The notes under the pieces are model-generated. The model made no database searches, was not told the origin of the DNA, and saw only the letters and a list, made by a program, of their open reading frames with translations. From Candidatus Gastranaerophilales bacterium (GTDB lineage: Bacteria > Cyanobacteriota > Vampirovibrionia > Gastranaerophilales > Gastranaerophilaceae): a DNA stretch of 64,000 nt. The stretch lies in contig CALUWC010000002.1 in the NCBI GenBank assembly GCA_944324395.1, positions 124,001 through 188,000 of the forward strand, given 5' to 3'. Positions 21,653 through 32,118 of this stretch are shown in pieces. Made by a program: the position numbers and the translations under genes. Position 1 is the stretch's first letter; the number at the start of each line of letters is the position of its first letter.

Positions 21653-21683
21653 AAAAAAAAAGCAAGAGTCCGCACTCCTGCTT
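21653..21683 (-). terminator. terminator of the phage-like cassette
   Basis: On the minus strand AAGCAGGAGT pairs with ACTCTTGCTT around GCGG, followed by at least eight T residues. It closes the cassette cleanly before the CNNM/CorC gene. The sequence AGTCCGCACT (21667-21676) occurs again at 31962-31971. Confidence 0.85.
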
Positions 21684-21719
21684 AAAGCTAATATAACTTA
21701 GCTAATAGTTTAGTTGTAC

Positions 21720-21947
21720 TTATTTTAAAATCAGACAGTCATAAATCTTGTCTATTTTATCTTTCATATCAACAACCTGACTTTTTAAATCTTCAAATCT
21801 GTTATTAGTTGTAAAACGACTTTCTATATCTTTAATTATTTCTCTATGCTTCTTTTCTAACTGTTCAGGAGTAACAACTATCCGCTCCTGCACCAAAAAC
21901 ACCAGAACAACAATTACAATCGGTGCATAATAAATGAATTGATCCAT
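21720..21947 (-). CDS. small membrane protein, last gene of phage-like cassette
   Basis: 75 residues: one N-terminal transmembrane helix (YYAPIVIVVLVFLVQ) followed by a charged coiled coil (TPEQLEKKHREIIKDIESRF). Layout is like spanin, holin-accessory or phage membrane-anchor proteins, but no family is certain. It follows the terminase large subunit by 18 bases and precedes the cassette terminator, so it is the last gene in the transcript. Confidence 0.6.
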   Translation of the reverse strand: MDQFIYYAPIVIVVLVFLVQERIVVTPEQLEKKHREIIKDIESRFTTNNRFEDLKSQVVDMKDKIDKIYDCLILK

Positions 21948-21965
21948 AATTTTCTCCTTAATAAT

Positions 21966-23258
21966 TTATCCCAAAACAATAGGCCAGTAAAAATCAACCA
22001 GATACGACGCAGCATCAAACGGATGAGATAAAAACTTCAGTTCCTTAGTCTGCTTTATCTGACTGTAGGTTGGAACATCAATTTTTGATGAACCTTCAAT
22101 ATAGCGAAGATTGTATATATTATATAAAAGTTTTTCACATTTTGGAGAAACGTATAAATGAATCTCTCCGTCTGCATTTCTGACTTTTGCATTAAATGCG
22201 GCTATACGGTTTTTTATCGGAGGATTGAAAGCTTTAATTTTTATATCAACATCATATCCGTAGGATTCAAGTTTTCGTTTTATAATTACATAATTTGTAT
22301 ATTCGCTCGTGCAGCTTCTGTTATCACCGGAGGCATCTCCATTGATAATAAGTTTACCTTTATGATCAGGGTAACGGTTATGAAATTCTTCACAGGTTTT
22401 AGCTGTTGTAGTATTTTCCAGAACCAGTTCATCAAAATAAAAAACTTTATCTTCTGTTTTATGAGCAAGAACCCATGCCATCGGATCAACATTAAAATCA
22501 CAGCTTATATGTACATCAAGTTCAGGCTGATATTGAATTTCTCTTACATTTTCATCCGTAAAATCTTTTACGACAAGATTAGAATTGTAATTGCCGGTTT
22601 TACCAAGAACAAAAATATCATAATAATTTTTGTCATAAAGTTTTTTTAATTCATCACAAAAACCTTCGGGTAAATGCGTATTTTGAGTTGTAGGAGCACA
22701 TATAAGCCTGTAATTTGGCGGGGGATTATTTAAAAAAGTTTTATATATCCAGCCTTTTTGAATTTCCGGATTTGTGTGACCAAAAATCCTGTATGTAAAA
22801 TTTTTCCACGAAGATTTTTTACGCTGCCGCATACGAGCAAGAAGCATTTTGAAAGTTTCATAAGGAATATCAGACATTTCTTCAATTTCAGCAAACCCGA
22901 GATTAAGGGATTTTAATTTATTCGGCTCGTCAAAATGTCTAAAAAGAATTTCCGAACCGTTATGAAAAACTATTTTTTGTTCTGCACTAACCCATTTATA
23001 ATCAAGTTTTTCAACAAAACCTATATTATCAAAATGCTCAAAATAAGTTTTCAACGTAGTATCTCTCACAAGGGTATAAGTTTGAGCCCCGACAAGACCT
23101 GTTATCCCCGGAAACTTTACAGCAAGAAGAATGCCTAATAAAGCTCCGGCAAAAGTTTTGCCGGAGCCGTACCCGCCTTGATATACTGCAACATCAAGGG
23201 AATACTTGTGAGGAATTTCCAAAAATCTTCTTTGAGCATCTAACAATTCATATTGCAT
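21966..23258 (-). CDS. phage terminase large subunit
   Basis: DNA-packaging motor, 430 residues. The ATPase Walker A is GGYGSGKTFAG and the Walker B-like motif is GFAEIEEMS. The RNase H-like nuclease has acidic motifs CDFNVDPMAW, IINGDASGD and HPFDAASY, so all catalytic acids appear intact. The frame extends five codons upstream to a TTG, but that falls inside a perfect GGAGG site; the ATG at 23258 is therefore the start. It lies 27 bases after the portal gene. Intact ATPase and nuclease argue against simple decay. Confidence 0.92.
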   Translation of the reverse strand: MQYELLDAQRRFLEIPHKYSLDVAVYQGGYGSGKTFAGALLGILLAVKFPGITGLVGAQTYTLVRDTTLKTYFEHFDNIGFVEKLDYKWVSAEQKIVFHNGSEILFRHFDEPNKLKSLNLGFAEIEEMSDIPYETFKMLLARMRQRKKSSWKNFTYRIFGHTNPEIQKGWIYKTFLNNPPPNYRLICAPTTQNTHLPEGFCDELKKLYDKNYYDIFVLGKTGNYNSNLVVKDFTDENVREIQYQPELDVHISCDFNVDPMAWVLAHKTEDKVFYFDELVLENTTTAKTCEEFHNRYPDHKGKLIINGDASGDNRSCTSEYTNYVIIKRKLESYGYDVDIKIKAFNPPIKNRIAAFNAKVRNADGEIHLYVSPKCEKLLYNIYNLRYIEGSSKIDVPTYSQIKQTKELKFLSHPFDAASYLVDFYWPIVLG

Positions 23259-23285
23259 TTTTGGTACCTCCAAAGATTTCTAATA

Positions 23286-25040
23286 TTACATTACATTATT
23301 CTGTACTGGCATTTGTCCAGAATTCAATTTGTTTATCTGATTTTTATTTATATTATTATTATTTTGGACAGCCAACGTTTTATTGTCGGAATCTTTATTT
23401 TCTGTTAAAAAATTATTAGCATTCTCAACTCCGTATTGTTCCATAGCAAATTTAAAACATTCAAGCCAGTCAATACGCTGTGAAACTTCACTAATTTTTG
23501 CAAAGGATTGAAGAACTTCAAATAATTCTTTTATACGGGCTTTACGCTCAAATGTGGCTTTTCTATCTCCATAGCGATAGATGTAACTCGAATTTCTGAT
23601 TTTGTCATCAATTTCCACCAGGAAAGTTCTGCCCCGATCATTTGCAAGAATAGATTCTTTTCCTAACTTGAAATTAGAAATAATTTCTGCAGTTTTTTCC
23701 ACCATAGGAACAATAACTTTTCTGTTAATTGCTTCCAAAATCATATTAAGTCTGGCTTCCTGACCGTTCACGGAATAGTTAATTTCTGTTGCAGTCTTAT
23801 CAGAAGATTGCAAATTCCCTGCCATATTTTTAAAAATTCCGGTTGCACTTTCAACTGTTGATTTAAAATAATTCAAAAAATCCCAGCCCTGCATAGCTTT
23901 ATCAAAAGAAAGCGGTGCAGGAACAGATGTCATTAAAGAAGCATCATATTCAATAATTTTTCCTGGTCTAACATCTTGTTGTCCGGTAAAACAGCCTTTT
24001 GGAGCAAGATAAGGAGGGTTCATCATAAGAGCGAGTGCATCAAGCTGTTTATTCAAAATGGTAGATGATATATTATTCAAAATCAAAGCAACCCTTAAAG
24101 GAGAAATTCCCCGTCCTGTAGAAGGACATTCAATAATATTTGCATGAATAAACGGATTTATTATGTACGGATTATCCTCAAATCTTATCAATACACATCT
24201 TCCCGCTATAACTATTAATTTGTTTTTTAAAACTTCACCTGTCGGAAGCTCTATATCTCCCCAGTATTCAATAACTTCTATTTTATTTTCATACGAAACC
24301 GACTTTTTAATACTTTTTGTTTTTTTACCTGCCACCACTCCTTTCAATATTTCCAGTTTTTCTTCATTAAGCATATTATTGGATTTGTTTGATTTGATTT
24401 CTGCCAAAGATTGATATGTTCTGTAAATTTTTGCACAACTGTCCCAGTTATTTACATCATTCTTATCAAAAACAAAATCCTCGTAATTTATAAACTTAAC
24501 TCTGGCATTATCATAAATAACTTTATTTTCAACAATAAAATTTTCTTTAATATTATTTTTTATTTGTTCATCCAGAGATATAGCACGCCTTGTTCGTCTA
24601 AATTTTGTATCCCAGCCGACAAATAAAGTTACCTCGCCGGTTTCAACTACAGAATCTATAATTTTTTCCATTTCATCTTCAATTTTCATCTTTTCAAAAG
24701 TATTAACAAGCATGGCTTTTTGCCTATTCGCATACTTTTGGGTTTCAAAATCAGTACCTTCAACATCAAACATTCCATCAGAATGAGAATATAAATTTTG
24801 AACCAGATGAGATTTCAGAGTCTGAGCAAGTTCATAAATATCAGGAAGCTGAATATTACAATCCCAGGAATTAATTTTCGGAATATCAGAATCATAAATT
24901 GCATATTTTATAAGTCTATTATCCGTTAATTGTGTTGTTCTGTCATTTTCAAAATAATCATATTTTTCAATTATATTGCTCATTAAAAATTGTTCATCAA
25001 TATAATTGATTTTATTTTTGTCATCATTTAAATTTTTCAT
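23286..25040 (-). CDS. phage portal protein, podovirus type
   Basis: 584 residues, forming the dodecameric ring through which DNA enters the capsid. The order and patterns (ALILNNISSTILNKQLDAL, MMNPPYLAPKG, then FKNMAGNLQSSDKTATEI and INRKVIVPMVEKTAEI) match portal proteins of P22-like and related podoviruses. The C-terminus is Asn/Gln-rich. Starts at an ATG with AGAGGT upstream. Between the GNAT gene and terminase large subunit, in the usual portal neighbourhood. Confidence 0.85.
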   Translation of the reverse strand: MKNLNDDKNKINYIDEQFLMSNIIEKYDYFENDRTTQLTDNRLIKYAIYDSDIPKINSWDCNIQLPDIYELAQTLKSHLVQNLYSHSDGMFDVEGTDFETQKYANRQKAMLVNTFEKMKIEDEMEKIIDSVVETGEVTLFVGWDTKFRRTRRAISLDEQIKNNIKENFIVENKVIYDNARVKFINYEDFVFDKNDVNNWDSCAKIYRTYQSLAEIKSNKSNNMLNEEKLEILKGVVAGKKTKSIKKSVSYENKIEVIEYWGDIELPTGEVLKNKLIVIAGRCVLIRFEDNPYIINPFIHANIIECPSTGRGISPLRVALILNNISSTILNKQLDALALMMNPPYLAPKGCFTGQQDVRPGKIIEYDASLMTSVPAPLSFDKAMQGWDFLNYFKSTVESATGIFKNMAGNLQSSDKTATEINYSVNGQEARLNMILEAINRKVIVPMVEKTAEIISNFKLGKESILANDRGRTFLVEIDDKIRNSSYIYRYGDRKATFERKARIKELFEVLQSFAKISEVSQRIDWLECFKFAMEQYGVENANNFLTENKDSDNKTLAVQNNNNINKNQINKLNSGQMPVQNNVM

Positions 25041-25048
25041 ATTTACCT

Positions 25049-25567
25049 CTACTTATAATAGTAATCTCGATACATGGCATAAATATCAATATTCTGGGGT
25101 TTACCAAGCCTTAAAGTTTCATTTACCAGAGTAGTTTCATAAGTAAAACCGCTTGATTTAAGCAGAGTTTTAACTCTGAAATTATCCGGATAAATTTGAG
25201 CTTTAATTTTAACAAGACCGAGTTCGTCAAAGCATTTCTTTAAAAAAATTTTAGCAGCAAATCTTGTAAAAACTCCCCATGCTCCACGCTCAAAACAAGT
25301 TGTTAATTCGGCACTGTATAATTTATTTTCATTTCCCGTAAAATTATCTAAAAATACAAATCCCATAAAAGTATCATCATAGTCGGTTATTACCCAAAAA
25401 TATGGAGAAATACTTTCTACAAATGAATAAATATCAGATATGCAATTTTTTGAAAAATCATCTATTAAAAACTTATAATATGAGCGGATACAATTTTTGA
25501 TATTTGGAATATACTGCAAATTACAATATAATCCGTATTGCCTGTTAAATACAATATTTTTAAACAT
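25049..25567 (-). CDS. GNAT-like acetyltransferase in phage-like cassette
   Basis: 172 residues with the GNAT pattern: a beta strand (DTFMGFVFLDNF), a central helix-strand region, LVKIKAQIYPDNFRVKTLL and a final strand (SGFTYETTLVNETLRL). The layout resembles RimJ/RimL-type enzymes, for which a neighbour-helix motif NxxA/S is common; here it is NFRVK. Acetyltransferase-like genes are known beside portal genes in some podoviruses. Substrate unknown. It overlaps nothing and is eight bases upstream of the portal gene. Confidence 0.65.
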   Translation of the reverse strand: MFKNIVFNRQYGLYCNLQYIPNIKNCIRSYYKFLIDDFSKNCISDIYSFVESISPYFWVITDYDDTFMGFVFLDNFTGNENKLYSAELTTCFERGAWGVFTRFAAKIFLKKCFDELGLVKIKAQIYPDNFRVKTLLKSSGFTYETTLVNETLRLGKPQNIDIYAMYRDYYYK

Positions 25568-25574
25568 ACGAATC

Positions 25575-25928
25575 TTATATTTTTATTTTCTCAAATTTTA
25601 CAAAACTATTATCACTAACAAAAGAATCTGCAGTACCGGCAAGAAGGTTATTACGCACAGAATTTTGCGAACCAAGATACCCATCAGCCTGAACTCCGTT
25701 TATATAAGATTTAGTCTTACTGTTTTTATTCATCACTGAATATACAGCATCTTTTGAAAAAAGCTTGTCTTTCGGAACTTTTTTAATATCAGTAACTAAT
25801 TTTTTGTTTCGTTTTTTGTTTGCTGTTTTTAGTTCCTGCTTAAATTCATTTTCAATTTTTGTTTTCATAATTTCTTCATAAGAAGAATTATTTAATAACA
25901 TTTTTTCAATATCTTTGTTATCTCTCAT
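25575..25928 (-). CDS. hypothetical phage-cassette protein, 117 residues
   Basis: Not recognised. Lys/Asn/Ser-rich, with a helical charged N-terminal half and a Gly/Ser-containing C-terminal half (NGVQADGYLGSQNSVRNNLL). I use the internal ATG at 25928 because AAAGG lies nine bases before it, whereas the upstream TTG falls directly against that site. Its position between small terminase subunit and GNAT gene suggests a structural or packaging accessory. Confidence 0.55.
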   Translation of the reverse strand: MRDNKDIEKMLLNNSSYEEIMKTKIENEFKQELKTANKKRNKKLVTDIKKVPKDKLFSKDAVYSVMNKNSKTKSYINGVQADGYLGSQNSVRNNLLAGTADSFVSDNSFVKFEKIKI

Positions 25929-25949
25929 CAAATACAACCTTTCATAAAT

Positions 25950-26384
25950 TTAGATTTTGTTATCATCCAGGTTTGAAATCGTAATAATTTTTGCTTCATG
26001 GTACTGTTCCTCCTCTGCAGGAGAAGAAAATCCCAAATATTTGCAAAGACTTTCTAAAGCTTTTAATCCTGCAGACGAATCTCTCAATTTCATTTTCCCT
26101 GTAGGGGAGCCATCTTTGTCTAAAATATCCTCCTTTTCCAGAGAAAATTCCGCAATCTGCAATAGTTTTTGAATAACATACCCCTTAGGGACATTCAAAG
26201 ATTCAATCTGCTGTTTCAAATGAACTTTAATTTCATGGATAATATTTTCTTTTTCAAGTAATTCCAAAGAAAAAGCTTTTAAATCTTTGCATTTGTAACC
26301 TGCTTTTTTCGCAGCAAATTCACCGTCAAGCGTCCTTATATATTCAATTACAAACCTTTTTTGCTGTGGTGTTAATTGCTTCAT
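25950..26384 (-). CDS. phage terminase small subunit
   Basis: 144 residues. The N-terminal helix-turn-helix region (TPQQKRFVIEYIRTLDGEFAA, then KKAGYK) is the terminase_2 pattern; a central oligomerisation region (ENIIHEIKVHLKQQIESLN) and a C-terminal tail follow. It recognises the packaging start on DNA and recruits the large subunit. Unusually, it is three genes away from the large subunit and lies after the capsid genes. A -10-like TATAAT at 26400-26405 could give it a transcript of its own. Confidence 0.8.
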   Translation of the reverse strand: MKQLTPQQKRFVIEYIRTLDGEFAAKKAGYKCKDLKAFSLELLEKENIIHEIKVHLKQQIESLNVPKGYVIQKLLQIAEFSLEKEDILDKDGSPTGKMKLRDSSAGLKALESLCKYLGFSSPAEEEQYHEAKIITISNLDDNKI

Positions 26385-26407
26385 CTCTTTACATTTCTTA
26401 TTATAAT

Positions 26408-26436
26408 TTGTGTTTTTACCAAATAATTTGTATAAT
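26408..26436 (+). promoter_or_regulatory. plus-strand promoter inside the phage-like cassette
   Basis: TTGTGT, exactly 17 bases, TATAAT. It points against the cassette genes and toward the hairpin at 26473-26508. Confidence 0.55.
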
Positions 26437-26442
26437 ATACAT

Positions 26443-26508
26443 GCTATTTATATTTCGGCTAGTGTAAATCTTAACAGGGGGGAATGAAAACGACTTCCTG
26501 TTTTTTTT
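26443..26508 (+). ncRNA. candidate small RNA, opposite strand to the phage cassette
   Basis: A roughly 66-base predicted transcript: a promoter with 17-base spacing at 26408-26436, then a hairpin AACAGGGG/TTCCTGTT (two G-U pairs) whose 3' arm runs into eight T residues at 26501-26508. It fills the 126-base gap between the adaptor and small terminase genes. It also contains a 13-codon frame behind AGGGGGGA, so a small peptide is an alternative. No homology is known to me. Confidence 0.4.
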
Positions 26509-26510
26509 GC

Positions 26511-27149
26511 CTATTTTCTGAATAAATTGACTACAGGCGAACTTAAAGCCGATACCGATGTTTTAGATTTCAAATTCAGCAAGGCTTCTTTGTACATGCT
26601 CAGCCAGTATGAAAATTTAAAATATTGAGGATTGGCCTTTAATCTTAAGCATGCTCCATAAACCAGTAATTGTTCCGCAAAAGGCATGGGAATTAAAGAA
26701 GTATCGTATGCTTCTTCCAAATCAGTTTTTTCATTATTTTCCGAATCTAAAACACAATTTTTTGTATAATAAATAATTTCGATATTTTTATCTTCTTTAA
26801 ACTTTGGAAATACAAGCTTATCTGAGAAACTGGAATATGTTTCGCTGGTTGAATTTCCTGTTAAAAAAGGCTCAATATTCTCAGAAAAATTATACTTTTT
26901 ACCGTCAATAAACAAATATAAAATTCTGCCGTTGACTGTATTATCAATTTCGGAACACCCAGCAGGCAAAGATAAACTCATCTTGCGAAGAAGGAAATTC
27001 CAGCCCTCAATATTACAGATTTCTTTATTAACAACATTTAAAATCGATACAATACGTTTATGATCATTTTTCACTAATTCTGACATTGAATTCACCTGTT
27101 TGTAATTCAATTCTAATAAACATTTATTTATAAGTTCTAAAAAATTCAT
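26511..27149 (-). CDS. phage head-tail adaptor protein, gp4/tail-tube-A like
   Basis: 212 residues. The opening MNFLELINKCLLELNYKQV, followed by VNKEICNIEGWNFL and a C-terminal helical PMPFAEQLLVYGACLRLKAN, is the pattern of podovirus adaptor proteins (P22 gp4, T7 gp11 type) that sit under the portal. Located after the 226-residue gene. Function inferred from pattern and neighbours. Confidence 0.7.
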   Translation of the reverse strand: MNFLELINKCLLELNYKQVNSMSELVKNDHKRIVSILNVVNKEICNIEGWNFLLRKMSLSLPAGCSEIDNTVNGRILYLFIDGKKYNFSENIEPFLTGNSTSETYSSFSDKLVFPKFKEDKNIEIIYYTKNCVLDSENNEKTDLEEAYDTSLIPMPFAEQLLVYGACLRLKANPQYFKFSYWLSMYKEALLNLKSKTSVSALSSPVVNLFRK

Positions 27150-27226
27150 TACATCTCCTTTTTTTGAAAAGCCCGAACAAGAATAATAAAATTCCTGCCC
27201 GGACTTTATTATTGAATTTACCGAAA

Positions 27227-27907
27227 TTATTTAATTAACCCTTGGCGTAGCTGCTCCATAATCAATTTTTCATTTCTGGTAAATTCTTCACCACTCATAT
27301 TGCCGATATCCTCACGAGTAAAAATCCTATTTGCATTACTGTCAGAAGAAGCATTTTGAGCATAAGCCGTCAATTTACTTTTCGCAGCAGAGTTCTCGTC
27401 ATTCAATGATTTCTCGTAAGCGGATTTTTTCAAATATCTGTCAACTGCGGCATTTTCTAATTTTTCCATAAGTTGAGATATTCGAACTATTTCATCTTTA
27501 TCCATATCATAATCCTTCAGGTAGTTCAGAACATCAGATCTTCCTTCCCCGTCAAAAAATCCCGGATGCTCTTGATTAAACAAAACCATAGGATTTAATA
27601 CAGAACCGGCTGAGGGCAATGCAGTATAAGGTTTTTGCGAAAAATTTCGAATATTCGAATTTTTATAGTTGTTAATATCTTGAGCTTTCCTTGCCAATTG
27701 AGTCATCAAATATTGTCCTTGTTGCTGACTAATTATACCCTTTGACAGAAGATCTTGAATCCTCTGCACATCTGCACCGATAGCTTGTTCTAATTGATAA
27801 AAAAGATCTTTATATCCTGAATTTTGGATAGGATATGAATTTCCGGCAGATGATGAAATTCTGTTATTTGCCTGCGGCAGAGTCTGACCGCACATTTGAT
27901 TTTGCAT
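27227..27907 (-). CDS. putative phage scaffold or internal virion protein
   Basis: 226 residues, mostly helical, Gln/Asn/Ser-rich, without membrane segments. A helical block (KDLFYQLEQAIGADVQRIQD) and a C-terminal charged helix (MSGEEFTRNEKLIMEQL) flank a Pro-containing middle. The charged C-terminal helix resembles capsid-scaffold tails, but it lies after the capsid gene in transcription, where scaffold genes usually come before. A ribosome site AAGGAG precedes the ATG. Assignment is inference from position and composition. Confidence 0.5.
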   Translation of the reverse strand: MQNQMCGQTLPQANNRISSSAGNSYPIQNSGYKDLFYQLEQAIGADVQRIQDLLSKGIISQQQGQYLMTQLARKAQDINNYKNSNIRNFSQKPYTALPSAGSVLNPMVLFNQEHPGFFDGEGRSDVLNYLKDYDMDKDEIVRISQLMEKLENAAVDRYLKKSAYEKSLNDENSAAKSKLTAYAQNASSDSNANRIFTREDIGNMSGEEFTRNEKLIMEQLRQGLIK

Positions 27908-27913
27908 AATAAT

Positions 27914-28162
27914 TTATTCTCCTTTTGTTTCTTGCAAAGATTTCATATAATGAACCGCTATTTCAATTACATCGTCAATAAAGCCTGACAGTAACACTGA
28001 AATTACATATCTCAGCCAATTTGGAAACGGTAAATTGCTTACGATATATTCAACAGCCAATTTCTTTTTTTCCTGTCCTTTTCCGCTTCCTAATTGTTCT
28101 TCAGCAACTAAAACAGCATTCCTTGCTAATTCTTTTATTTGATTTTTTAAATTTGAAAACAT
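27914..28162 (-). CDS. holin-like small protein (LLH/phage_holin_6 type)
   Basis: 82 residues. The stretch LVAEEQLGSGKGQEKKKLAV resembles the C-terminal pattern of phage LL-H-type holins, followed by a moderately hydrophobic helix (WLRYVISVLLSGFIDDVIEIAV). With the amidase gene this could form a lysis pair. It is seven bases upstream of the 226-residue gene. Holin assignment is likely but unproven, since the hydrophobic helix is near the C-terminus. Confidence 0.55.
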   Translation of the reverse strand: MFSNLKNQIKELARNAVLVAEEQLGSGKGQEKKKLAVEYIVSNLPFPNWLRYVISVLLSGFIDDVIEIAVHYMKSLQETKGE

Positions 28163-28234
28163 ATAATTTCTCCGTATTATTTTTTAAAATGTACTCTCAA
28201 TCACTATCAACCGGAAAGAGAGTACATTTAAGCC

Positions 28235-29173
28235 TTAACCTCCGGTTGAAGAAGATTCCGGTGTTGTAGTTTCAGTATCCGTAGTTGTATCTGTAGAATC
28301 ATCTTCTATTACAACAGAACTATCAACAGAAACTATCATTTTTGCCAGAGATTTAGGCTGTACGGTTTTTGCACCGTATAAATACAAACCTCTTACCAAA
28401 TCAGAAAATGAATCTTTATCTCTTAAACTTTCTATTTTGGCAAGCTGAGAAGCAAAAGTAATTGCATCGTTCGTACCGGCTAACACATAATATTTATCAT
28501 CAACTTCAGTGAGATTTGTACTGACTAAAACATCCATGCCTGCAATTCTTCCGATAGAACCTTCTCTCAATGTTTTATCCGCAACTTTATATGCACTGAT
28601 AAACTCAGGACTTTGCAGCAAATAAGCTTCAATATTAGGATTGATAACAACCCATGGTTTAACCCCTGCATACACAGCATCTGAATTTTTCAAAGCCAGA
28701 GCTAATTTTACAAATTGTTCATATATAGAAGACTTATCTAACGTAATGGGGGAATCTTCCGTTCCAATAGTGTTTTCTTCGGGAACATCAGTATGTAAAC
28801 CTAAAAGATAAGAATCCTGAACTACTTCAATTGCCTTTTTCGCATTTGTCAAATGGGCTTCCATAATATCGGCATTAGCCTGAACTTGAGCAATATCATC
28901 AATTTTAAAAGCAAAAAACTTTTTCTGATCAATTACCAGATCTTGAGATGTCGGAGTAAGACTTGCATATTCAATATTGTCAGAAGTCAAAGTAGACACC
29001 GTAACATCCGCAGGAGTAATAATTTTTACTGTATCACCCTGATTTTTAATTTCTCCTTCCCAATTTTTGTTAACACACTGAAGCATTACACAATTTTTTT
29101 CTAACATCTGGTTTAGCTTTTGGCTCCAAATTTGAGGAATAAAAGCTGAGTAGGTTGAGCTGAATTCTGTCAT
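28235..29173 (-). CDS. phage major capsid protein, HK97-like
   Basis: 312 residues. Patterns typical of podovirus capsid proteins: MTEFSSTYSAFIPQIWSQKL at the N-terminus, then KVADKTLREGSIGRIAGMDV with LVSTNL, and a late VQPKSLAKMIV. The frame extends eight codons upstream, but the ATG at 29173 has AAAGGA in front. The last 23 residues are almost only Thr, Ser, Asp, Glu, Pro and Gly, an unstructured tail likely exposed on the particle. No capsid protease gene is nearby and no delta domain is evident. Confidence 0.82.
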   Translation of the reverse strand: MTEFSSTYSAFIPQIWSQKLNQMLEKNCVMLQCVNKNWEGEIKNQGDTVKIITPADVTVSTLTSDNIEYASLTPTSQDLVIDQKKFFAFKIDDIAQVQANADIMEAHLTNAKKAIEVVQDSYLLGLHTDVPEENTIGTEDSPITLDKSSIYEQFVKLALALKNSDAVYAGVKPWVVINPNIEAYLLQSPEFISAYKVADKTLREGSIGRIAGMDVLVSTNLTEVDDKYYVLAGTNDAITFASQLAKIESLRDKDSFSDLVRGLYLYGAKTVQPKSLAKMIVSVDSSVVIEDDSTDTTTDTETTTPESSSTGG

Positions 29174-29224
29174 TTGTTTTTCCTTTCTCTTTTTCAAACT
29201 GTATACATTCTATGAGTGGTGATC

Positions 29225-30745
29225 TTAATCATCATTATAAATTTCTCTGAATTGCAGACCGATAATTGCACAATTATCAGACATTTCAGAGCCTTCTACG
29301 CAAAGCTGGATAGAATAATTGCTTCCGCAAATTTCAGCTTTTTCCATTACTTCCGAGGTAACAGACCATACAGGGGCATCATTTTCTTCTAAACTCCAGC
29401 AATACTCTAAATCATCAGGTGTGTCATCTCCGCCCCAGATAAAATGACTGTAATGCTTTGAATATATTAACTCCGCATCGTCACTAACTCCGCTATCATA
29501 ATCTTTATATATAGAAAATTTAAATTTATTATCATTTAAATCATCCAGAATAAAATAAAATTCATCAATGAGTTTCCGTCTGAGAACTTTCCCCAAAGAT
29601 AAAAATGGGGATTTCCACATAAATTTAATAGATTCTCCGTTAAAAGATGTGCCATAATCCTCACGATATATCCGGCCTTCTTTATCGGCAGTTAAAATAT
29701 ATGTTCTAAAAACACAAGCTGTAGTGATATCCTGCGGAATTATTCTTTTATACCAGGCTTTATTAACATAATCATTTATCCAGATTGTATGATAACAGGA
29801 ATCGTCCAGATACGGGAATAAAACCCATATCTGGCTTTTATCCGGATAATGAAGAATTTTTGTATTATCTAACCTTGATACATCAAATTTATTAAATTCA
29901 TCTTTTATATTTACGGAAATTTCAGAACCAAGCCTGATTTGATTCAATTCCCCGACCTGTTCAAGTGCAAAAATACCGTTGCTCAAAAAATACTGTTTAT
30001 TATCAACATTAACAATTGAATCTTTTGCAATAGTTCCTTTCTCTGCAAAAGGAACTATCGCAAAATCAGAAGGATTTGAGCCTGTCAAAATAAAGACTCT
30101 TTCTCTTTTATAAATGGCTAAATACTCCTTATAAGGATTCATTGTAATAATATCTGCAGTATCTGTATGAAAATCACTTATATAACCGGCATCTTCTTCT
30201 GTTTCAAAATCATCATAAGTTCCGAGTGCTGAATAATATATTGTTGAATCTTTTGCACACCAAACCCGGCCTTTATAAACCGTAATACACTCCGGATACA
30301 AAATATCTCCGCTTTTATCTTTTAGATTGCAATCTACAATATCAAAATTCTGATTATCTTTGATATAAAACATTGCATCAGATTCTGTTGAAACAAGTAT
30401 TCCCCGTAAAAACTTTGCGAATTTAACATTGACTCCGGTCAAAGTTTTATCAAGAAGTTTTAATTCATCATTTACTTCCGAATACACATAAACTTTACCT
30501 GATAATGTTGTAATCACAAGTTTATATAAACTATCTGATTCAAATTCACTCATACCGGTAATTTCTTCAACAACAGGAAGCTGAATTACAAGAGTATTTC
30601 CTTTTTGTTTTATTAAGCCTTTGTTGTTATAAATTTCAATATTTTCAGAATCTGACCAATAAATTTTCTTTGGATTCATTCCCATTTCAGTTTTAGTAGA
30701 TGCCTGGTTAATACCGCCAGACAAATCAAAATAATTTACATCCAT
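29225..30745 (-). CDS. podovirus tail-hub/stabilisation protein (gp10-like)
   Basis: 506 residues, rich in beta strands with repeated propeller-like motifs (YKGRVWCAKDSTIYYSALG, YKEYLAIYKRERVFILTGSN, YFLSNGIFALEQVG). This is the pattern of P22 gp10/T7 gp12-type tail hub proteins that plug the portal. It has AAGGGG upstream and lies between the amidase and capsid genes. It is the only tail gene I can identify; spike, fibre and needle genes are absent. Confidence 0.65.
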   Translation of the reverse strand: MDVNYFDLSGGINQASTKTEMGMNPKKIYWSDSENIEIYNNKGLIKQKGNTLVIQLPVVEEITGMSEFESDSLYKLVITTLSGKVYVYSEVNDELKLLDKTLTGVNVKFAKFLRGILVSTESDAMFYIKDNQNFDIVDCNLKDKSGDILYPECITVYKGRVWCAKDSTIYYSALGTYDDFETEEDAGYISDFHTDTADIITMNPYKEYLAIYKRERVFILTGSNPSDFAIVPFAEKGTIAKDSIVNVDNKQYFLSNGIFALEQVGELNQIRLGSEISVNIKDEFNKFDVSRLDNTKILHYPDKSQIWVLFPYLDDSCYHTIWINDYVNKAWYKRIIPQDITTACVFRTYILTADKEGRIYREDYGTSFNGESIKFMWKSPFLSLGKVLRRKLIDEFYFILDDLNDNKFKFSIYKDYDSGVSDDAELIYSKHYSHFIWGGDDTPDDLEYCWSLEENDAPVWSVTSEVMEKAEICGSNYSIQLCVEGSEMSDNCAIIGLQFREIYNDD

Positions 30746-30756
30746 AAATTAACCCC

Positions 30757-31248
30757 TTATAATTTTTCTTTATACCAACGAACTTTAGATCTGATAAAAC
30801 TGCCAACATCGCTTTGCACAACCCAAGGGTAAGGCGGAATCCAGATAATATCAATTTTGCCGGCACTTGATGTTTTAGGATTTAATTTTCCAAATTCGTA
30901 ATGGGTAAAAACAGTATCCGGCGTAACCTGTAAATTATACTTTTTGCAGAGTTCTGCACAAAATTTCATACACGATTCAAATTGAATTTTTGTTATAGGA
31001 AAATTTCCGGGAGATGTACTTGATTTAAACCCGTACATTCCGCACATGCAAACCCCGATAGAACCGGTATTGCCGCCGCCTGTATGAGCTGCATATTTCC
31101 CATCATTACAATCTTCATTATCTTCCGGCTTATAAATCCCGCTATAAACTTTTCCATCTGCATCAATTAAATAATGATAATAATTCTTTTCGAATTCACT
31201 TGGATAATATCTTCCGGCACTCCAGTGAATAATAATTCTTTTAATCAT
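30757..31248 (-). CDS. N-acetylmuramoyl-L-alanine amidase, amidase_2 (T7 lysozyme/PGRP fold)
   Basis: Peptidoglycan-cutting endolysin of 163 residues. Zinc ligands are suggested by IIIHWSAG (His8) and FTHYEFG. The third ligand is less clear; the C-terminal GKIDIIWIP replaces the usual motif, with Asp at that place. AAHTGGGNTGSIGVC is the conserved amidase_2 core. A GGAG site precedes the ATG. It is the second gene of the cassette and would release particles by wall lysis, together with the holin-like protein. Confidence 0.85.
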   Translation of the reverse strand: MIKRIIIHWSAGRYYPSEFEKNYYHYLIDADGKVYSGIYKPEDNEDCNDGKYAAHTGGGNTGSIGVCMCGMYGFKSSTSPGNFPITKIQFESCMKFCAELCKKYNLQVTPDTVFTHYEFGKLNPKTSSAGKIDIIWIPPYPWVVQSDVGSFIRSKVRWYKEKL

Positions 31249-31258
31249 GTAAATCTCC

Positions 31259-31462
31259 TCATAATATTTTCCATTTCGGATTTAAATGCATATATAAAAC
31301 TACTGCGTTGACTCGATTTCTGGCATTTAATGAGTCCATTATTGAATATATATGTGTCTGTACTGTCCTTCTTGACATTTTTAGTTTTACGGCAATCTCT
31401 TTATCTGTAAATCCGCGTGCCACCAAGGTTAATATCTCTAATTTCTTTGGTGATAATTTCAT
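31259..31462 (-). CDS. LuxR/GerE-type HTH regulator, DNA-binding domain only
   Basis: 67 residues consisting of only a LuxR_C helix-turn-helix: LSPKKLEILTLVARGFTDKE, IAVKLKMSRRTVQTHIYSIM and LNARNRVNAVV. There is no receiver or ligand domain, as in some GerE-like proteins. It is the first gene of the phage-like cassette, ten bases before the amidase gene, so it probably controls it or itself. A GTG three bases upstream is an alternative start. A -10-like TATAAT lies about 40 bases upstream beside the inverted repeat TTAAG/CTTAA (31504-31517). Confidence 0.85.
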   Translation of the reverse strand: MKLSPKKLEILTLVARGFTDKEIAVKLKMSRRTVQTHIYSIMDSLNARNRVNAVVLYMHLNPKWKIL

Positions 31463-31548
31463 CACTTCTCTCTTTCTTCCGGTTAAGTTAACTTTATATT
31501 ATATTAAGCGTCCTTAAGTTTTTTAATAATATCTCCAGATTAGTTAAG

Positions 31549-31597
31549 AAAAACGCAGAGGGGAGAAAGGGTAGATAAATGATAGCAACCCCTCTGC
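31549..31597 (-). terminator. minus-strand terminator with no known upstream gene
   Basis: Perfect nine-base stem GCAGAGGGG/CCCCTCTGC, 25-base loop, and T5 immediately after on the minus strand. Any transcript it ends must start between 31600 and about 32100. The large loop lowers confidence. Confidence 0.5.
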
Positions 31598-31961
31598 AAC
31601 CAATTAGAGTAAAATGAATGAAGGATTTGGTTTAGTGAATAAAACTAACAAAACCAAGTTTCAAATTAGATAAGTTGGAGTAAGACTTTTCCTGAGTATA
31701 AAAACTTTTGCAATTACAATAACATACACCTCACAAATAATTACAGTCCGGTAATAATTAATTGACCTTAAATCTCTCCCCGTTATTATTAACTTGTCTG
31801 ATACGGCAGTACCGATAGAGAAATTCTAATCCATTTGTTATTAACATATCCCGTAATACATATACACTTTTCCTCTTGTAAGCTTTAGACTGCTATTGTT
31901 TGTTGAAATTCAGTCATTGCCGCTTACATTTTTAAGTATATACAATTTTTAATTAAATAAT

Positions 31962-31995
31962 AGTCCGCACTTTTCCTTAAGTAAAAATACGGACT
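31962..31995. repeat. 34-base imperfect palindrome centred on CTTAAG
   Basis: Outer arms AGTCCG/CGGACT with 17 of 20 bases symmetric per half. Its left arm contains AGTCCGCACT, the same ten bases as in the cassette terminator at 21667-21676. Confidence 0.55.
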
Positions 31996-32106
31996 TGACA
32001 ACCTGAAAATGCACTCAACTCCAAACACTCAGGACACTAATACTCTCAAGAGCATAAAATAAAACTTTGAAAAATTTTAATAACTTGCAAAAAAAATTAC
32101 TCCATT

Positions 32107-32112
32107 TACAAT
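32107..32112 (+). promoter_or_regulatory. -10 box of leaderless histidine kinase gene
   Basis: TACAAT with six bases (AAAATT) before the ATG, so +1 falls on the start codon. TTGCAA at 32085-32090, 16 bases upstream, is a fair -35. Confidence 0.6.
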
Positions 32113-32118
32113 AAAATT

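What the first reader, a model, noticed from the sequence alone, without database searches (positions are those of the whole stretch)
21653..31500. Compact capsid/packaging cassette without integrase, replication or receptor-binding genes
Thirteen same-strand genes give capsid, portal, both terminase subunits, an adaptor, one tail-hub-like protein, a holin-like protein and an amidase in under 10 kb, closed by one terminator. Every frame is open and the terminase ATPase and nuclease motifs are intact. Missing are integrase, repressor, replication, capsid protease, spike and fibre genes. That set is too small for an autonomous podovirus but suits a gene-transfer-agent-like or domesticated particle. 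It begins with a stand-alone LuxR-type DNA-binding protein, and a histidine kinase is encoded divergently; chromosomal kinases and regulators govern known GTAs such as that of Rhodobacter. The GTA role is hypothesis.
Basis: partly seen in the sequence, partly recalled or inferred. Interest (0 to 1): 0.85.

Follow-up and report, generated by a model that had tools for sequence, protein, structure and literature searches.

The report
Domesticated phage capsid with tagged toxins
Gut bacteria of the order Gastranaerophilales have kept, as an inherited chromosomal gene set, the shell-building and DNA-packing genes of a phage, and they also carry many toxin-like proteins bearing the same short tail motif that phage scaffold proteins end in, which suggests that the shell is loaded with toxins and released to act on neighbouring cells.

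Summary
In detail: thirteen intact same-strand genes (window 31465-21720) encode capsid, scaffold, portal, both terminase subunits, a short T7-type tail, two holin-like proteins and an amidase, without integrase or replication genes. The host is a Gastranaerophilales (Melainabacteria) genome. The element is domesticated: terminase is in 45/46 genomes of the genus, gene order is fixed across genera, dN/dS (0.03-0.08 for structural genes) equals that of flanking housekeeping genes, and cassette distances track rpoB (Mantel r 0.89). A GTA-like origin is well supported; DNA transfer is not shown. The unexpected part: the C-terminal ~34 residues of the scaffold protein (27907-27227) recur on at least 67 other proteins, including two elsewhere in this genome. 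These carry PBECR RNase, GH108 muramidase, transglycosylase-like, lipase or DUF6973 domains and usually sit beside small membrane or periplasmic immunity-like genes. The same motif ends the gene just upstream of the capsid gene in independent phages (HTVC103P, MaAM05, vir515), so it is a scaffold motif. Best reading: polymorphic toxins are loaded into a GTA-like particle by scaffold mimicry and delivered after lysis. Closest known: FpGTA of Faecalibacterium, and MuF or polyvalent phage toxins.

The parts
31259..31465 (-). LuxR-type (GerE) stand-alone HTH protein, first gene of the cassette
   Evidence: PF00196 7.7e-16; present in 56/56 complete homologous loci
30757..31248 (-). N-acetylmuramoyl-L-alanine amidase (endolysin)
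   Evidence: PF01510 2.9e-16; phrog_5867 1.7e-31
29225..30745 (-). short-tail nozzle-like structural protein (T7 gp12 type)
   Evidence: phrog_5107 2.2e-20, phrog_3287 virion structural 1.8e-15; dN/dS 0.058
28235..29197 (-). major capsid protein
   Evidence: phrog_267 major head protein 1.6e-49; dN/dS 0.039
27914..28162 (-). holin, LLH superfamily
   Evidence: PF09682 1.6e-5, phrog_6918 6.3e-8
27227..27907 (-). scaffold protein (p226), all-helical
   Evidence: C-terminal motif is shared with scaffold-slot genes of independent phages; AlphaFold model all-helical
27230..27331 (-). C-terminal capsid-loading motif of the scaffold (tag, about 34 residues), also found on effector proteins
   Evidence: tag model match at G000:C2:151230-151331 = window 27230-27331
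26511..27149 (-). head-tail adaptor (T7 gp11 type)
   Evidence: phrog_6013 tail protein 2.8e-6
25950..26384 (-). terminase small subunit
   Evidence: PF03592 7.7e-15
25575..25937 (-). conserved 120-aa protein of unknown role
   Evidence: conserved in position in 56 loci; dN/dS 0.13
25049..25567 (-). GNAT-fold protein
   Evidence: PF13302 1.6e-8
23286..25040 (-). portal protein, T7-type head-tail connector
   Evidence: PF12236 8.4e-7, phrog_332 3.3e-30
21966..23273 (-). terminase large subunit (ATPase and nuclease)
   Evidence: PF04466 1.2e-19; 45/46 genomes of the genus; dN/dS 0.032
21720..21947 (-). second holin-like membrane protein (BhlA-like, weak)
   Evidence: PF10960 0.023, below cut-off; conserved, dN/dS 0.027
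21660..21683 (-). intrinsic-terminator-like stem closing the operon
   Evidence: 10-pair stem followed by a T run

Best explanation
The cassette is a domesticated, vertically inherited podovirus-type particle (GTA-like). The 226-aa protein is its scaffold. Toxin-like effectors encoded beside the cassette or elsewhere in the genome carry one or two copies of the scaffold's C-terminal capsid-binding motif and so are pulled into the procapsid during assembly. DNA is packaged by TerS/TerL through the portal; holin and amidase lyse the producer; released particles deliver the effectors (and whatever DNA is packaged) to neighbouring, probably closely related, cells, and cells holding the matching immunity gene are spared. 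Shown here: gene set, conservation, selection, vertical inheritance, motif sharing, the motif's scaffold origin, toxin-type domains, immunity-like neighbours. Inferred: loading into the capsid, DNA content, lysis, delivery, killing.
For: TerL in 45/46 genus genomes, usually single copy, mostly 78-93% identity; MCP in 149/288 family genomes. Same 13-gene order in about 80 loci. 56 complete loci: all genes intact in nearly all; median dN/dS TerL 0.032, MCP 0.039, portal 0.045 vs dxr 0.049, kinase 0.049, corC 0.044. Cassette vs rpoB distances r=0.89, 0/2000 permutations as high. Tag on at least 67 non-scaffold proteins, two in this genome: PBECR1 toxin with two tags (contig C3) and an N-tagged toxin followed by two membrane immunity-like ORFs and an orphan toxin tail (C14). 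Tag in 109/110 genomes with close MCP vs 26/160 without MCP, of which 3 have the cassette TerL. 19/58 loci have tagged effectors in or next to the cassette. Immunity-like neighbour within 150 bp: 37/46 effectors vs 24/76 other genes, p=2e-7. The tag model hits the extreme C-terminus of the gene just upstream of the capsid gene in HTVC103P, MaAM05, vir515 (1e-8 to 1e-12), weakly in annotated scaffolds of AP45, D6E, Javan262, and in uncultured relatives. Two-tag effectors: 31/74 in cassette genomes, 0/24 elsewhere.
Against: No particle, packaged DNA or toxicity has been observed. Several genomes of other genera carry a related tag on the same effector types with a siphovirus-type cassette whose scaffold does not end in this motif, so the second tag type may bind something else. 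23/110 cassette genomes show at most one tag match, presumably the scaffold copy. No receptor-binding protein was found. TerS keeps a recognisable Terminase_2 domain, so random DNA packaging cannot be assumed. The tag-scaffold equivalence rests on sequence and gene position; the DUF6973 domain function is unknown and fold searches gave nothing.
Confidence: 0.6

Rival explanations
1. Plain gene transfer agent: particles package random host DNA and transfer it; the tagged enzymes are virion lysins that help DNA entry or release, not weapons.
For: Terminase and portal under strong purifying selection; size and gene set resemble FpGTA; many effectors are peptidoglycan hydrolases.
Against: RNase-type PBECR and lipase/DUF6973 effectors, large variation between close genomes, paired immunity-like genes and orphan toxin modules fit polymorphic toxins, not entry lysins.
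Confidence: 0.2
2. PBSX-like killer particle: DNA is packaged but not injected; effectors and particle act as a bacteriocin, with no gene transfer.
For: Effector/immunity logic; precedent of PBSX described in PMC12946183.
Against: Portal, adaptor and nozzle are all intact and selected, as expected if injection still works; no direct data.
Confidence: 0.15
3. Recently integrated or decaying prophage, or a capsid-forming phage satellite.
For: Related fuller phage-like copies exist in some genomes (L225, L227).
Against: Near-universal in the genus, intact, housekeeping-level dN/dS, no integrase or replication genes, congruent with rpoB.
Confidence: 0.03

Closest known systems
FpGTA of Faecalibacterium (Borodovich et al., Nat Commun 2026, PMC12946183)
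   Same: About 10 kb podovirus-like TerS/TerL/portal/scaffold/capsid operon near-ubiquitous in a gut genus; described there as the first podovirus-like GTA; particles and 8.4-8.9 kb host DNA were shown experimentally.
   Different: Other phylum; FpGTA has a second operon with fibre and lysis genes, here lysis genes lie in the same operon; no tagged toxins reported; sequence homology between the two was not testable here.
MuF polymorphic toxins of temperate phages (Jamet et al. 2017, PMC5576092)
   Same: Toxin domains on a phage head protein with small immunity ORFs; proposed delivery by the phage.
   Different: MuF domain belongs to a portal-bound head protein of temperate phages; here the constant part is the scaffold's C-terminal motif and the capsid is domesticated. 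Two effectors (L094, L232) additionally end in a MuF-like Cys/His motif.
Polyvalent proteins of phages (Iyer et al. 2017, PMC5512222)
   Same: PBECR and LPD3 domains predicted to be packaged in heads and injected.
   Different: Those are large multidomain proteins of infectious elements; here small one-domain effectors with a shared tag and paired immunity-like genes.
Engineered P22 scaffold-cargo fusions (PMC9962691)
   Same: Cargo fused to truncated scaffold that keeps the C-terminal helix-turn-helix (P22 residues 268-303) is packaged during assembly.
   Different: P22 fusions are man-made; this would be a natural use of the same principle.
RcGTA and other recognised GTAs
   Same: Small inherited capsid/packaging cluster without replication genes, under purifying selection.
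   Different: RcGTA is siphovirus-like and alphaproteobacterial (own knowledge); DNA packaging here is unproven.

Membership tests
Gene transfer agent | phage-derived head/packaging gene cluster fixed in a host clade | tested here: met
   45/46 genus genomes; fixed 13-gene order
Gene transfer agent | purifying selection and vertical inheritance | tested here: met
   dN/dS equal to housekeeping genes; Mantel r 0.89 with rpoB; three well-supported tree conflicts, all shallow
Gene transfer agent | no integration or replication genes | tested here: met
   none among 13 genes or the immediate flanks
Gene transfer agent | particles package mostly random host DNA | not testable with these tools
   needs particle purification and sequencing
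Gene transfer agent | transfers DNA to recipient cells | not testable with these tools
   needs transfer assay
Polymorphic toxin system | constant trafficking module joined to varied toxin domains | tested here: met
   tag shared by at least 67 proteins with DUF6973, GH108, PBECR1, LPD3, lipase domains
Polymorphic toxin system | adjacent immunity genes | tested here: met
   37/46 vs 24/76 controls; by gene neighbourhood only, immunity function not tested
Polymorphic toxin system | experimentally toxic variable domain | not testable with these tools
   needs expression assay
MuF toxin family | MuF domain as constant region | tested here: not met
   no MuF family among Pfam matches of 60 effectors
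Intact prophage or capsid-forming satellite | integrase and replication or excision genes; variable site | tested here: not met

The most novel reading that the evidence does not exclude
A whole bacterial lineage uses a domesticated phage capsid as a toxin-delivery organelle: polymorphic antibacterial toxins with dedicated immunity genes are sorted into the capsid by a natural copy of the scaffold's coat-binding motif, a trafficking mode not found described for polymorphic toxins or GTAs in the papers searched.
Probability: 0.5. Interest if true: 0.95.

Novelty: new variant of a known kind. Interest (0 to 1): 0.87.

Why it matters
It would add a GTA-like lineage in the non-photosynthetic relatives of cyanobacteria, widespread in animal guts, and give a concrete mechanism (scaffold mimicry) by which a domesticated capsid carries proteins as well as DNA. 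It makes the open question of what GTAs are good for testable, because killing of non-kin by loaded toxins is a direct benefit to the producer's kin. It also gives a natural counterpart to engineered scaffold-fusion nanocages, and a sequence tag with which to find further cargo.

Tried and rejected
Literature search for Gastranaerophilales with gene transfer agent found nothing; Melainabacteria with prophage gave nothing relevant. IMG/VR hits were considered as free viruses and rejected: of 38 loci only one (L141) is a rearranged relative, and several of the rest carry chromosomal flanks. p226 gave no usable PHROG or fold match, so its role rests on motif and gene position. PDB fold search of the DUF6973 effector gave no significant match (model pLDDT 68). 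In-frame stops reported inside some capsid matches were treated as alignment run-on past the gene end, because the capsid ORF is complete in 56/56 loci. The idea that the kinase governs the cassette was dropped because its linkage is genus-specific.

Full report
Observation. The window holds thirteen intact - strand genes from 31465 down to 21720, closed by a terminator-like stem at 21683-21660. Family searches assign a LuxR-type HTH protein, amidase, nozzle-like tail protein, major capsid protein, LLH holin, a 226-aa protein, head-tail adaptor, TerS, a 120-aa protein, a GNAT protein, T7-type portal, TerL and a second holin-like protein. No integrase, repressor, replication or protease gene is present. 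The flanks are chromosomal: rarA and a CNNM/CorC protein on one side; histidine kinase, dxr, response regulator and a T2SS ATPase on the other.

Host. Matching contigs are named Candidatus Gastranaerophilales, Melainabacteria or Cyanobacteria in nearly all cases that carry an informative name (lineage). The genome is 1.89 Mb in 25 contigs, 99.4% complete.

Domestication. TerL occurs in 45 of 46 genomes of the genus, nearly always once. The capsid protein occurs in 149 of 288 genomes of the family, 110 of them at 57% identity or more. In about 80 loci the thirteen genes keep the same order. Of 56 complete loci almost every gene is intact; median dN/dS is 0.032 for TerL, 0.039 for capsid, 0.045 for portal, 0.048 for TerS and 0.058 for the nozzle, against 0.044-0.049 for corC, dxr and the kinase. 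Cassette and rpoB distances over 22 genomes correlate at r = 0.89, with none of 2000 permutations as high; sampled genera g7, g9 and g13 are monophyletic in both trees, g10 is split in the rpoB tree at weak support, and the three strong conflicts are shallow. Flanks are constant within the genus (kinase/dxr; often corC), while other genera share a different left flank (ZIP transporter, radical SAM). This is the pattern of a domesticated element, not of a phage.

The tag. ORFs inserted in or next to the cassette in some relatives shared a short stretch with the C-terminus of the 226-aa protein. A profile of that stretch finds accessory proteins in many loci, and a 34-residue model (A1) finds at least 67 distinct non-scaffold proteins in the loci examined. 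They have one or two tags, mostly at the C-terminus, sometimes at the N-terminus, often followed by a YTRxDGTxVxGYYR or WVTINGNH tail. Pfam domains in 60 of them: DUF6973 (17), GH108 muramidase (8), LPD3 (3), PBECR1 RNase (2), lipase-type (2-3). This genome carries two, far from the cassette: a PBECR1 protein with two tags (contig C3) and an N-tagged protein on C14 followed by two membrane proteins and an orphan toxin-like tail module.

Linkage of tag and cassette. In 288 family genomes the tag is found in 109 of 110 genomes with a close capsid gene, 17 of 18 with a more distant one and 26 of 160 with none; three of those 26 do have the cassette TerL. A phylum-wide control found tags only in this order. 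Nineteen of 58 loci have a tagged gene in or beside the cassette, most often between portal and TerL. Double-tagged effectors, whose first tag resembles the scaffold's, make up 31 of 74 effectors from cassette genomes and 0 of 24 from genomes without it. Genomes are related, so these p-values overstate independence.

What the tag is. In related phage-like loci the tag model hits the extreme C-terminus of the gene directly upstream of the capsid gene, the usual scaffold slot (L220, L221, L223, L224, L228). It does the same in independent phages: Pelagibacter phage HTVC103P gp78 (3.8e-8), Microcystis phage MaAM05 (4.2e-8) and Caudoviricetes vir515 (2.6e-12), and marginally in proteins annotated as scaffold in AP45, D6E and Javan262; phiSASD1 and Llama scaffolds were not detected. 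E-values are for a small search set. The model of the 226-aa protein is helical, with the tag as a compact set of short helices after a flexible linker (pLDDT 85-91). P22 scaffold has a C-terminal helix-turn-helix of 36 residues essential for assembly, and cargo fused to truncated scaffold is packaged (PMC9962691). By analogy the tag is a capsid-loading signal; this step is inferred.

Immunity. Small signal-peptide or membrane proteins lie within 150 bp of 37 of 46 effectors, against 24 of 76 other genes in the same stretches (p = 2e-7). Effector class and neighbour type agree by inspection: peptidoglycan hydrolases with periplasmic-type proteins, DUF6973 and lipases with divergently read multi-pass membrane proteins, N-tagged toxins with downstream membrane proteins. 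The transmembrane calls are simple hydropathy windows.

Reading. The cassette most likely makes short-tailed particles built on a scaffold, filled with DNA by the terminase and carrying tagged toxins, released by holin and amidase. Whether the DNA is random host DNA, and whether it is transferred, is open; TerS retains a Terminase_2 domain. FpGTA (PMC12946183) is the closest proven system in layout; MuF toxins (PMC5576092) and polyvalent proteins (PMC5512222) are the closest in cargo logic. The combination, a domesticated capsid with a scaffold-derived sorting tag on polymorphic toxins, was not found in the papers searched.

Limits. No receptor-binding protein was found. A second, siphovirus-type cassette in other genera carries tagged effectors without this scaffold motif, so the second tag type may act differently. 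All functional steps beyond sequence are inference.

Noticed in passing
L262, L265, L268 (genera g6, g19): A different, siphovirus-type cassette (terminase, portal, scaffold, capsid, tail genes, hub) with a tagged effector and immunity-like genes next to portal and scaffold; possibly a second domesticated particle.
   Followed up: partly
L106-L143 (IMG/VR contigs): Several viral-collection contigs with this cassette include chromosomal flanks (dxr, kinase, corC) and look like host chromosome misfiled as virus.
   Followed up: partly
upstream of LuxR gene in most relatives, e.g. L099 6902-7324; absent from window 31466-32118: A Cys-rich 117-165 aa protein (MGYIHCCG...) precedes the LuxR gene in most loci but is missing in this window, where only a doubtful 27-aa trace remains.
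   Followed up: partly
L225 and L227: Some genomes hold a second, fuller phage-like copy with related TerL (60-63%) and capsid (40-43%), a candidate for the ancestral phage type.
   Followed up: partly
L094 18455-19480, L232 856-2010: Two DUF6973 effectors end in a MuF-like motif (CxxCxxLDG...HPNCxC), linking this tag system with MuF toxins; seen by eye only.
   Followed up: no
effector alignment A2: Two effectors match the Pfam serum amyloid A model (PF00277, best 5.9e-19); whether SAA and DUF6973 are related was not tested.
   Followed up: no
G000 contig C14, L149 7520-7771: Orphan toxin C-terminal module of another toxin type downstream of the tagged toxin and its two membrane proteins, as in classical polymorphic toxin arrays.
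   Followed up: partly
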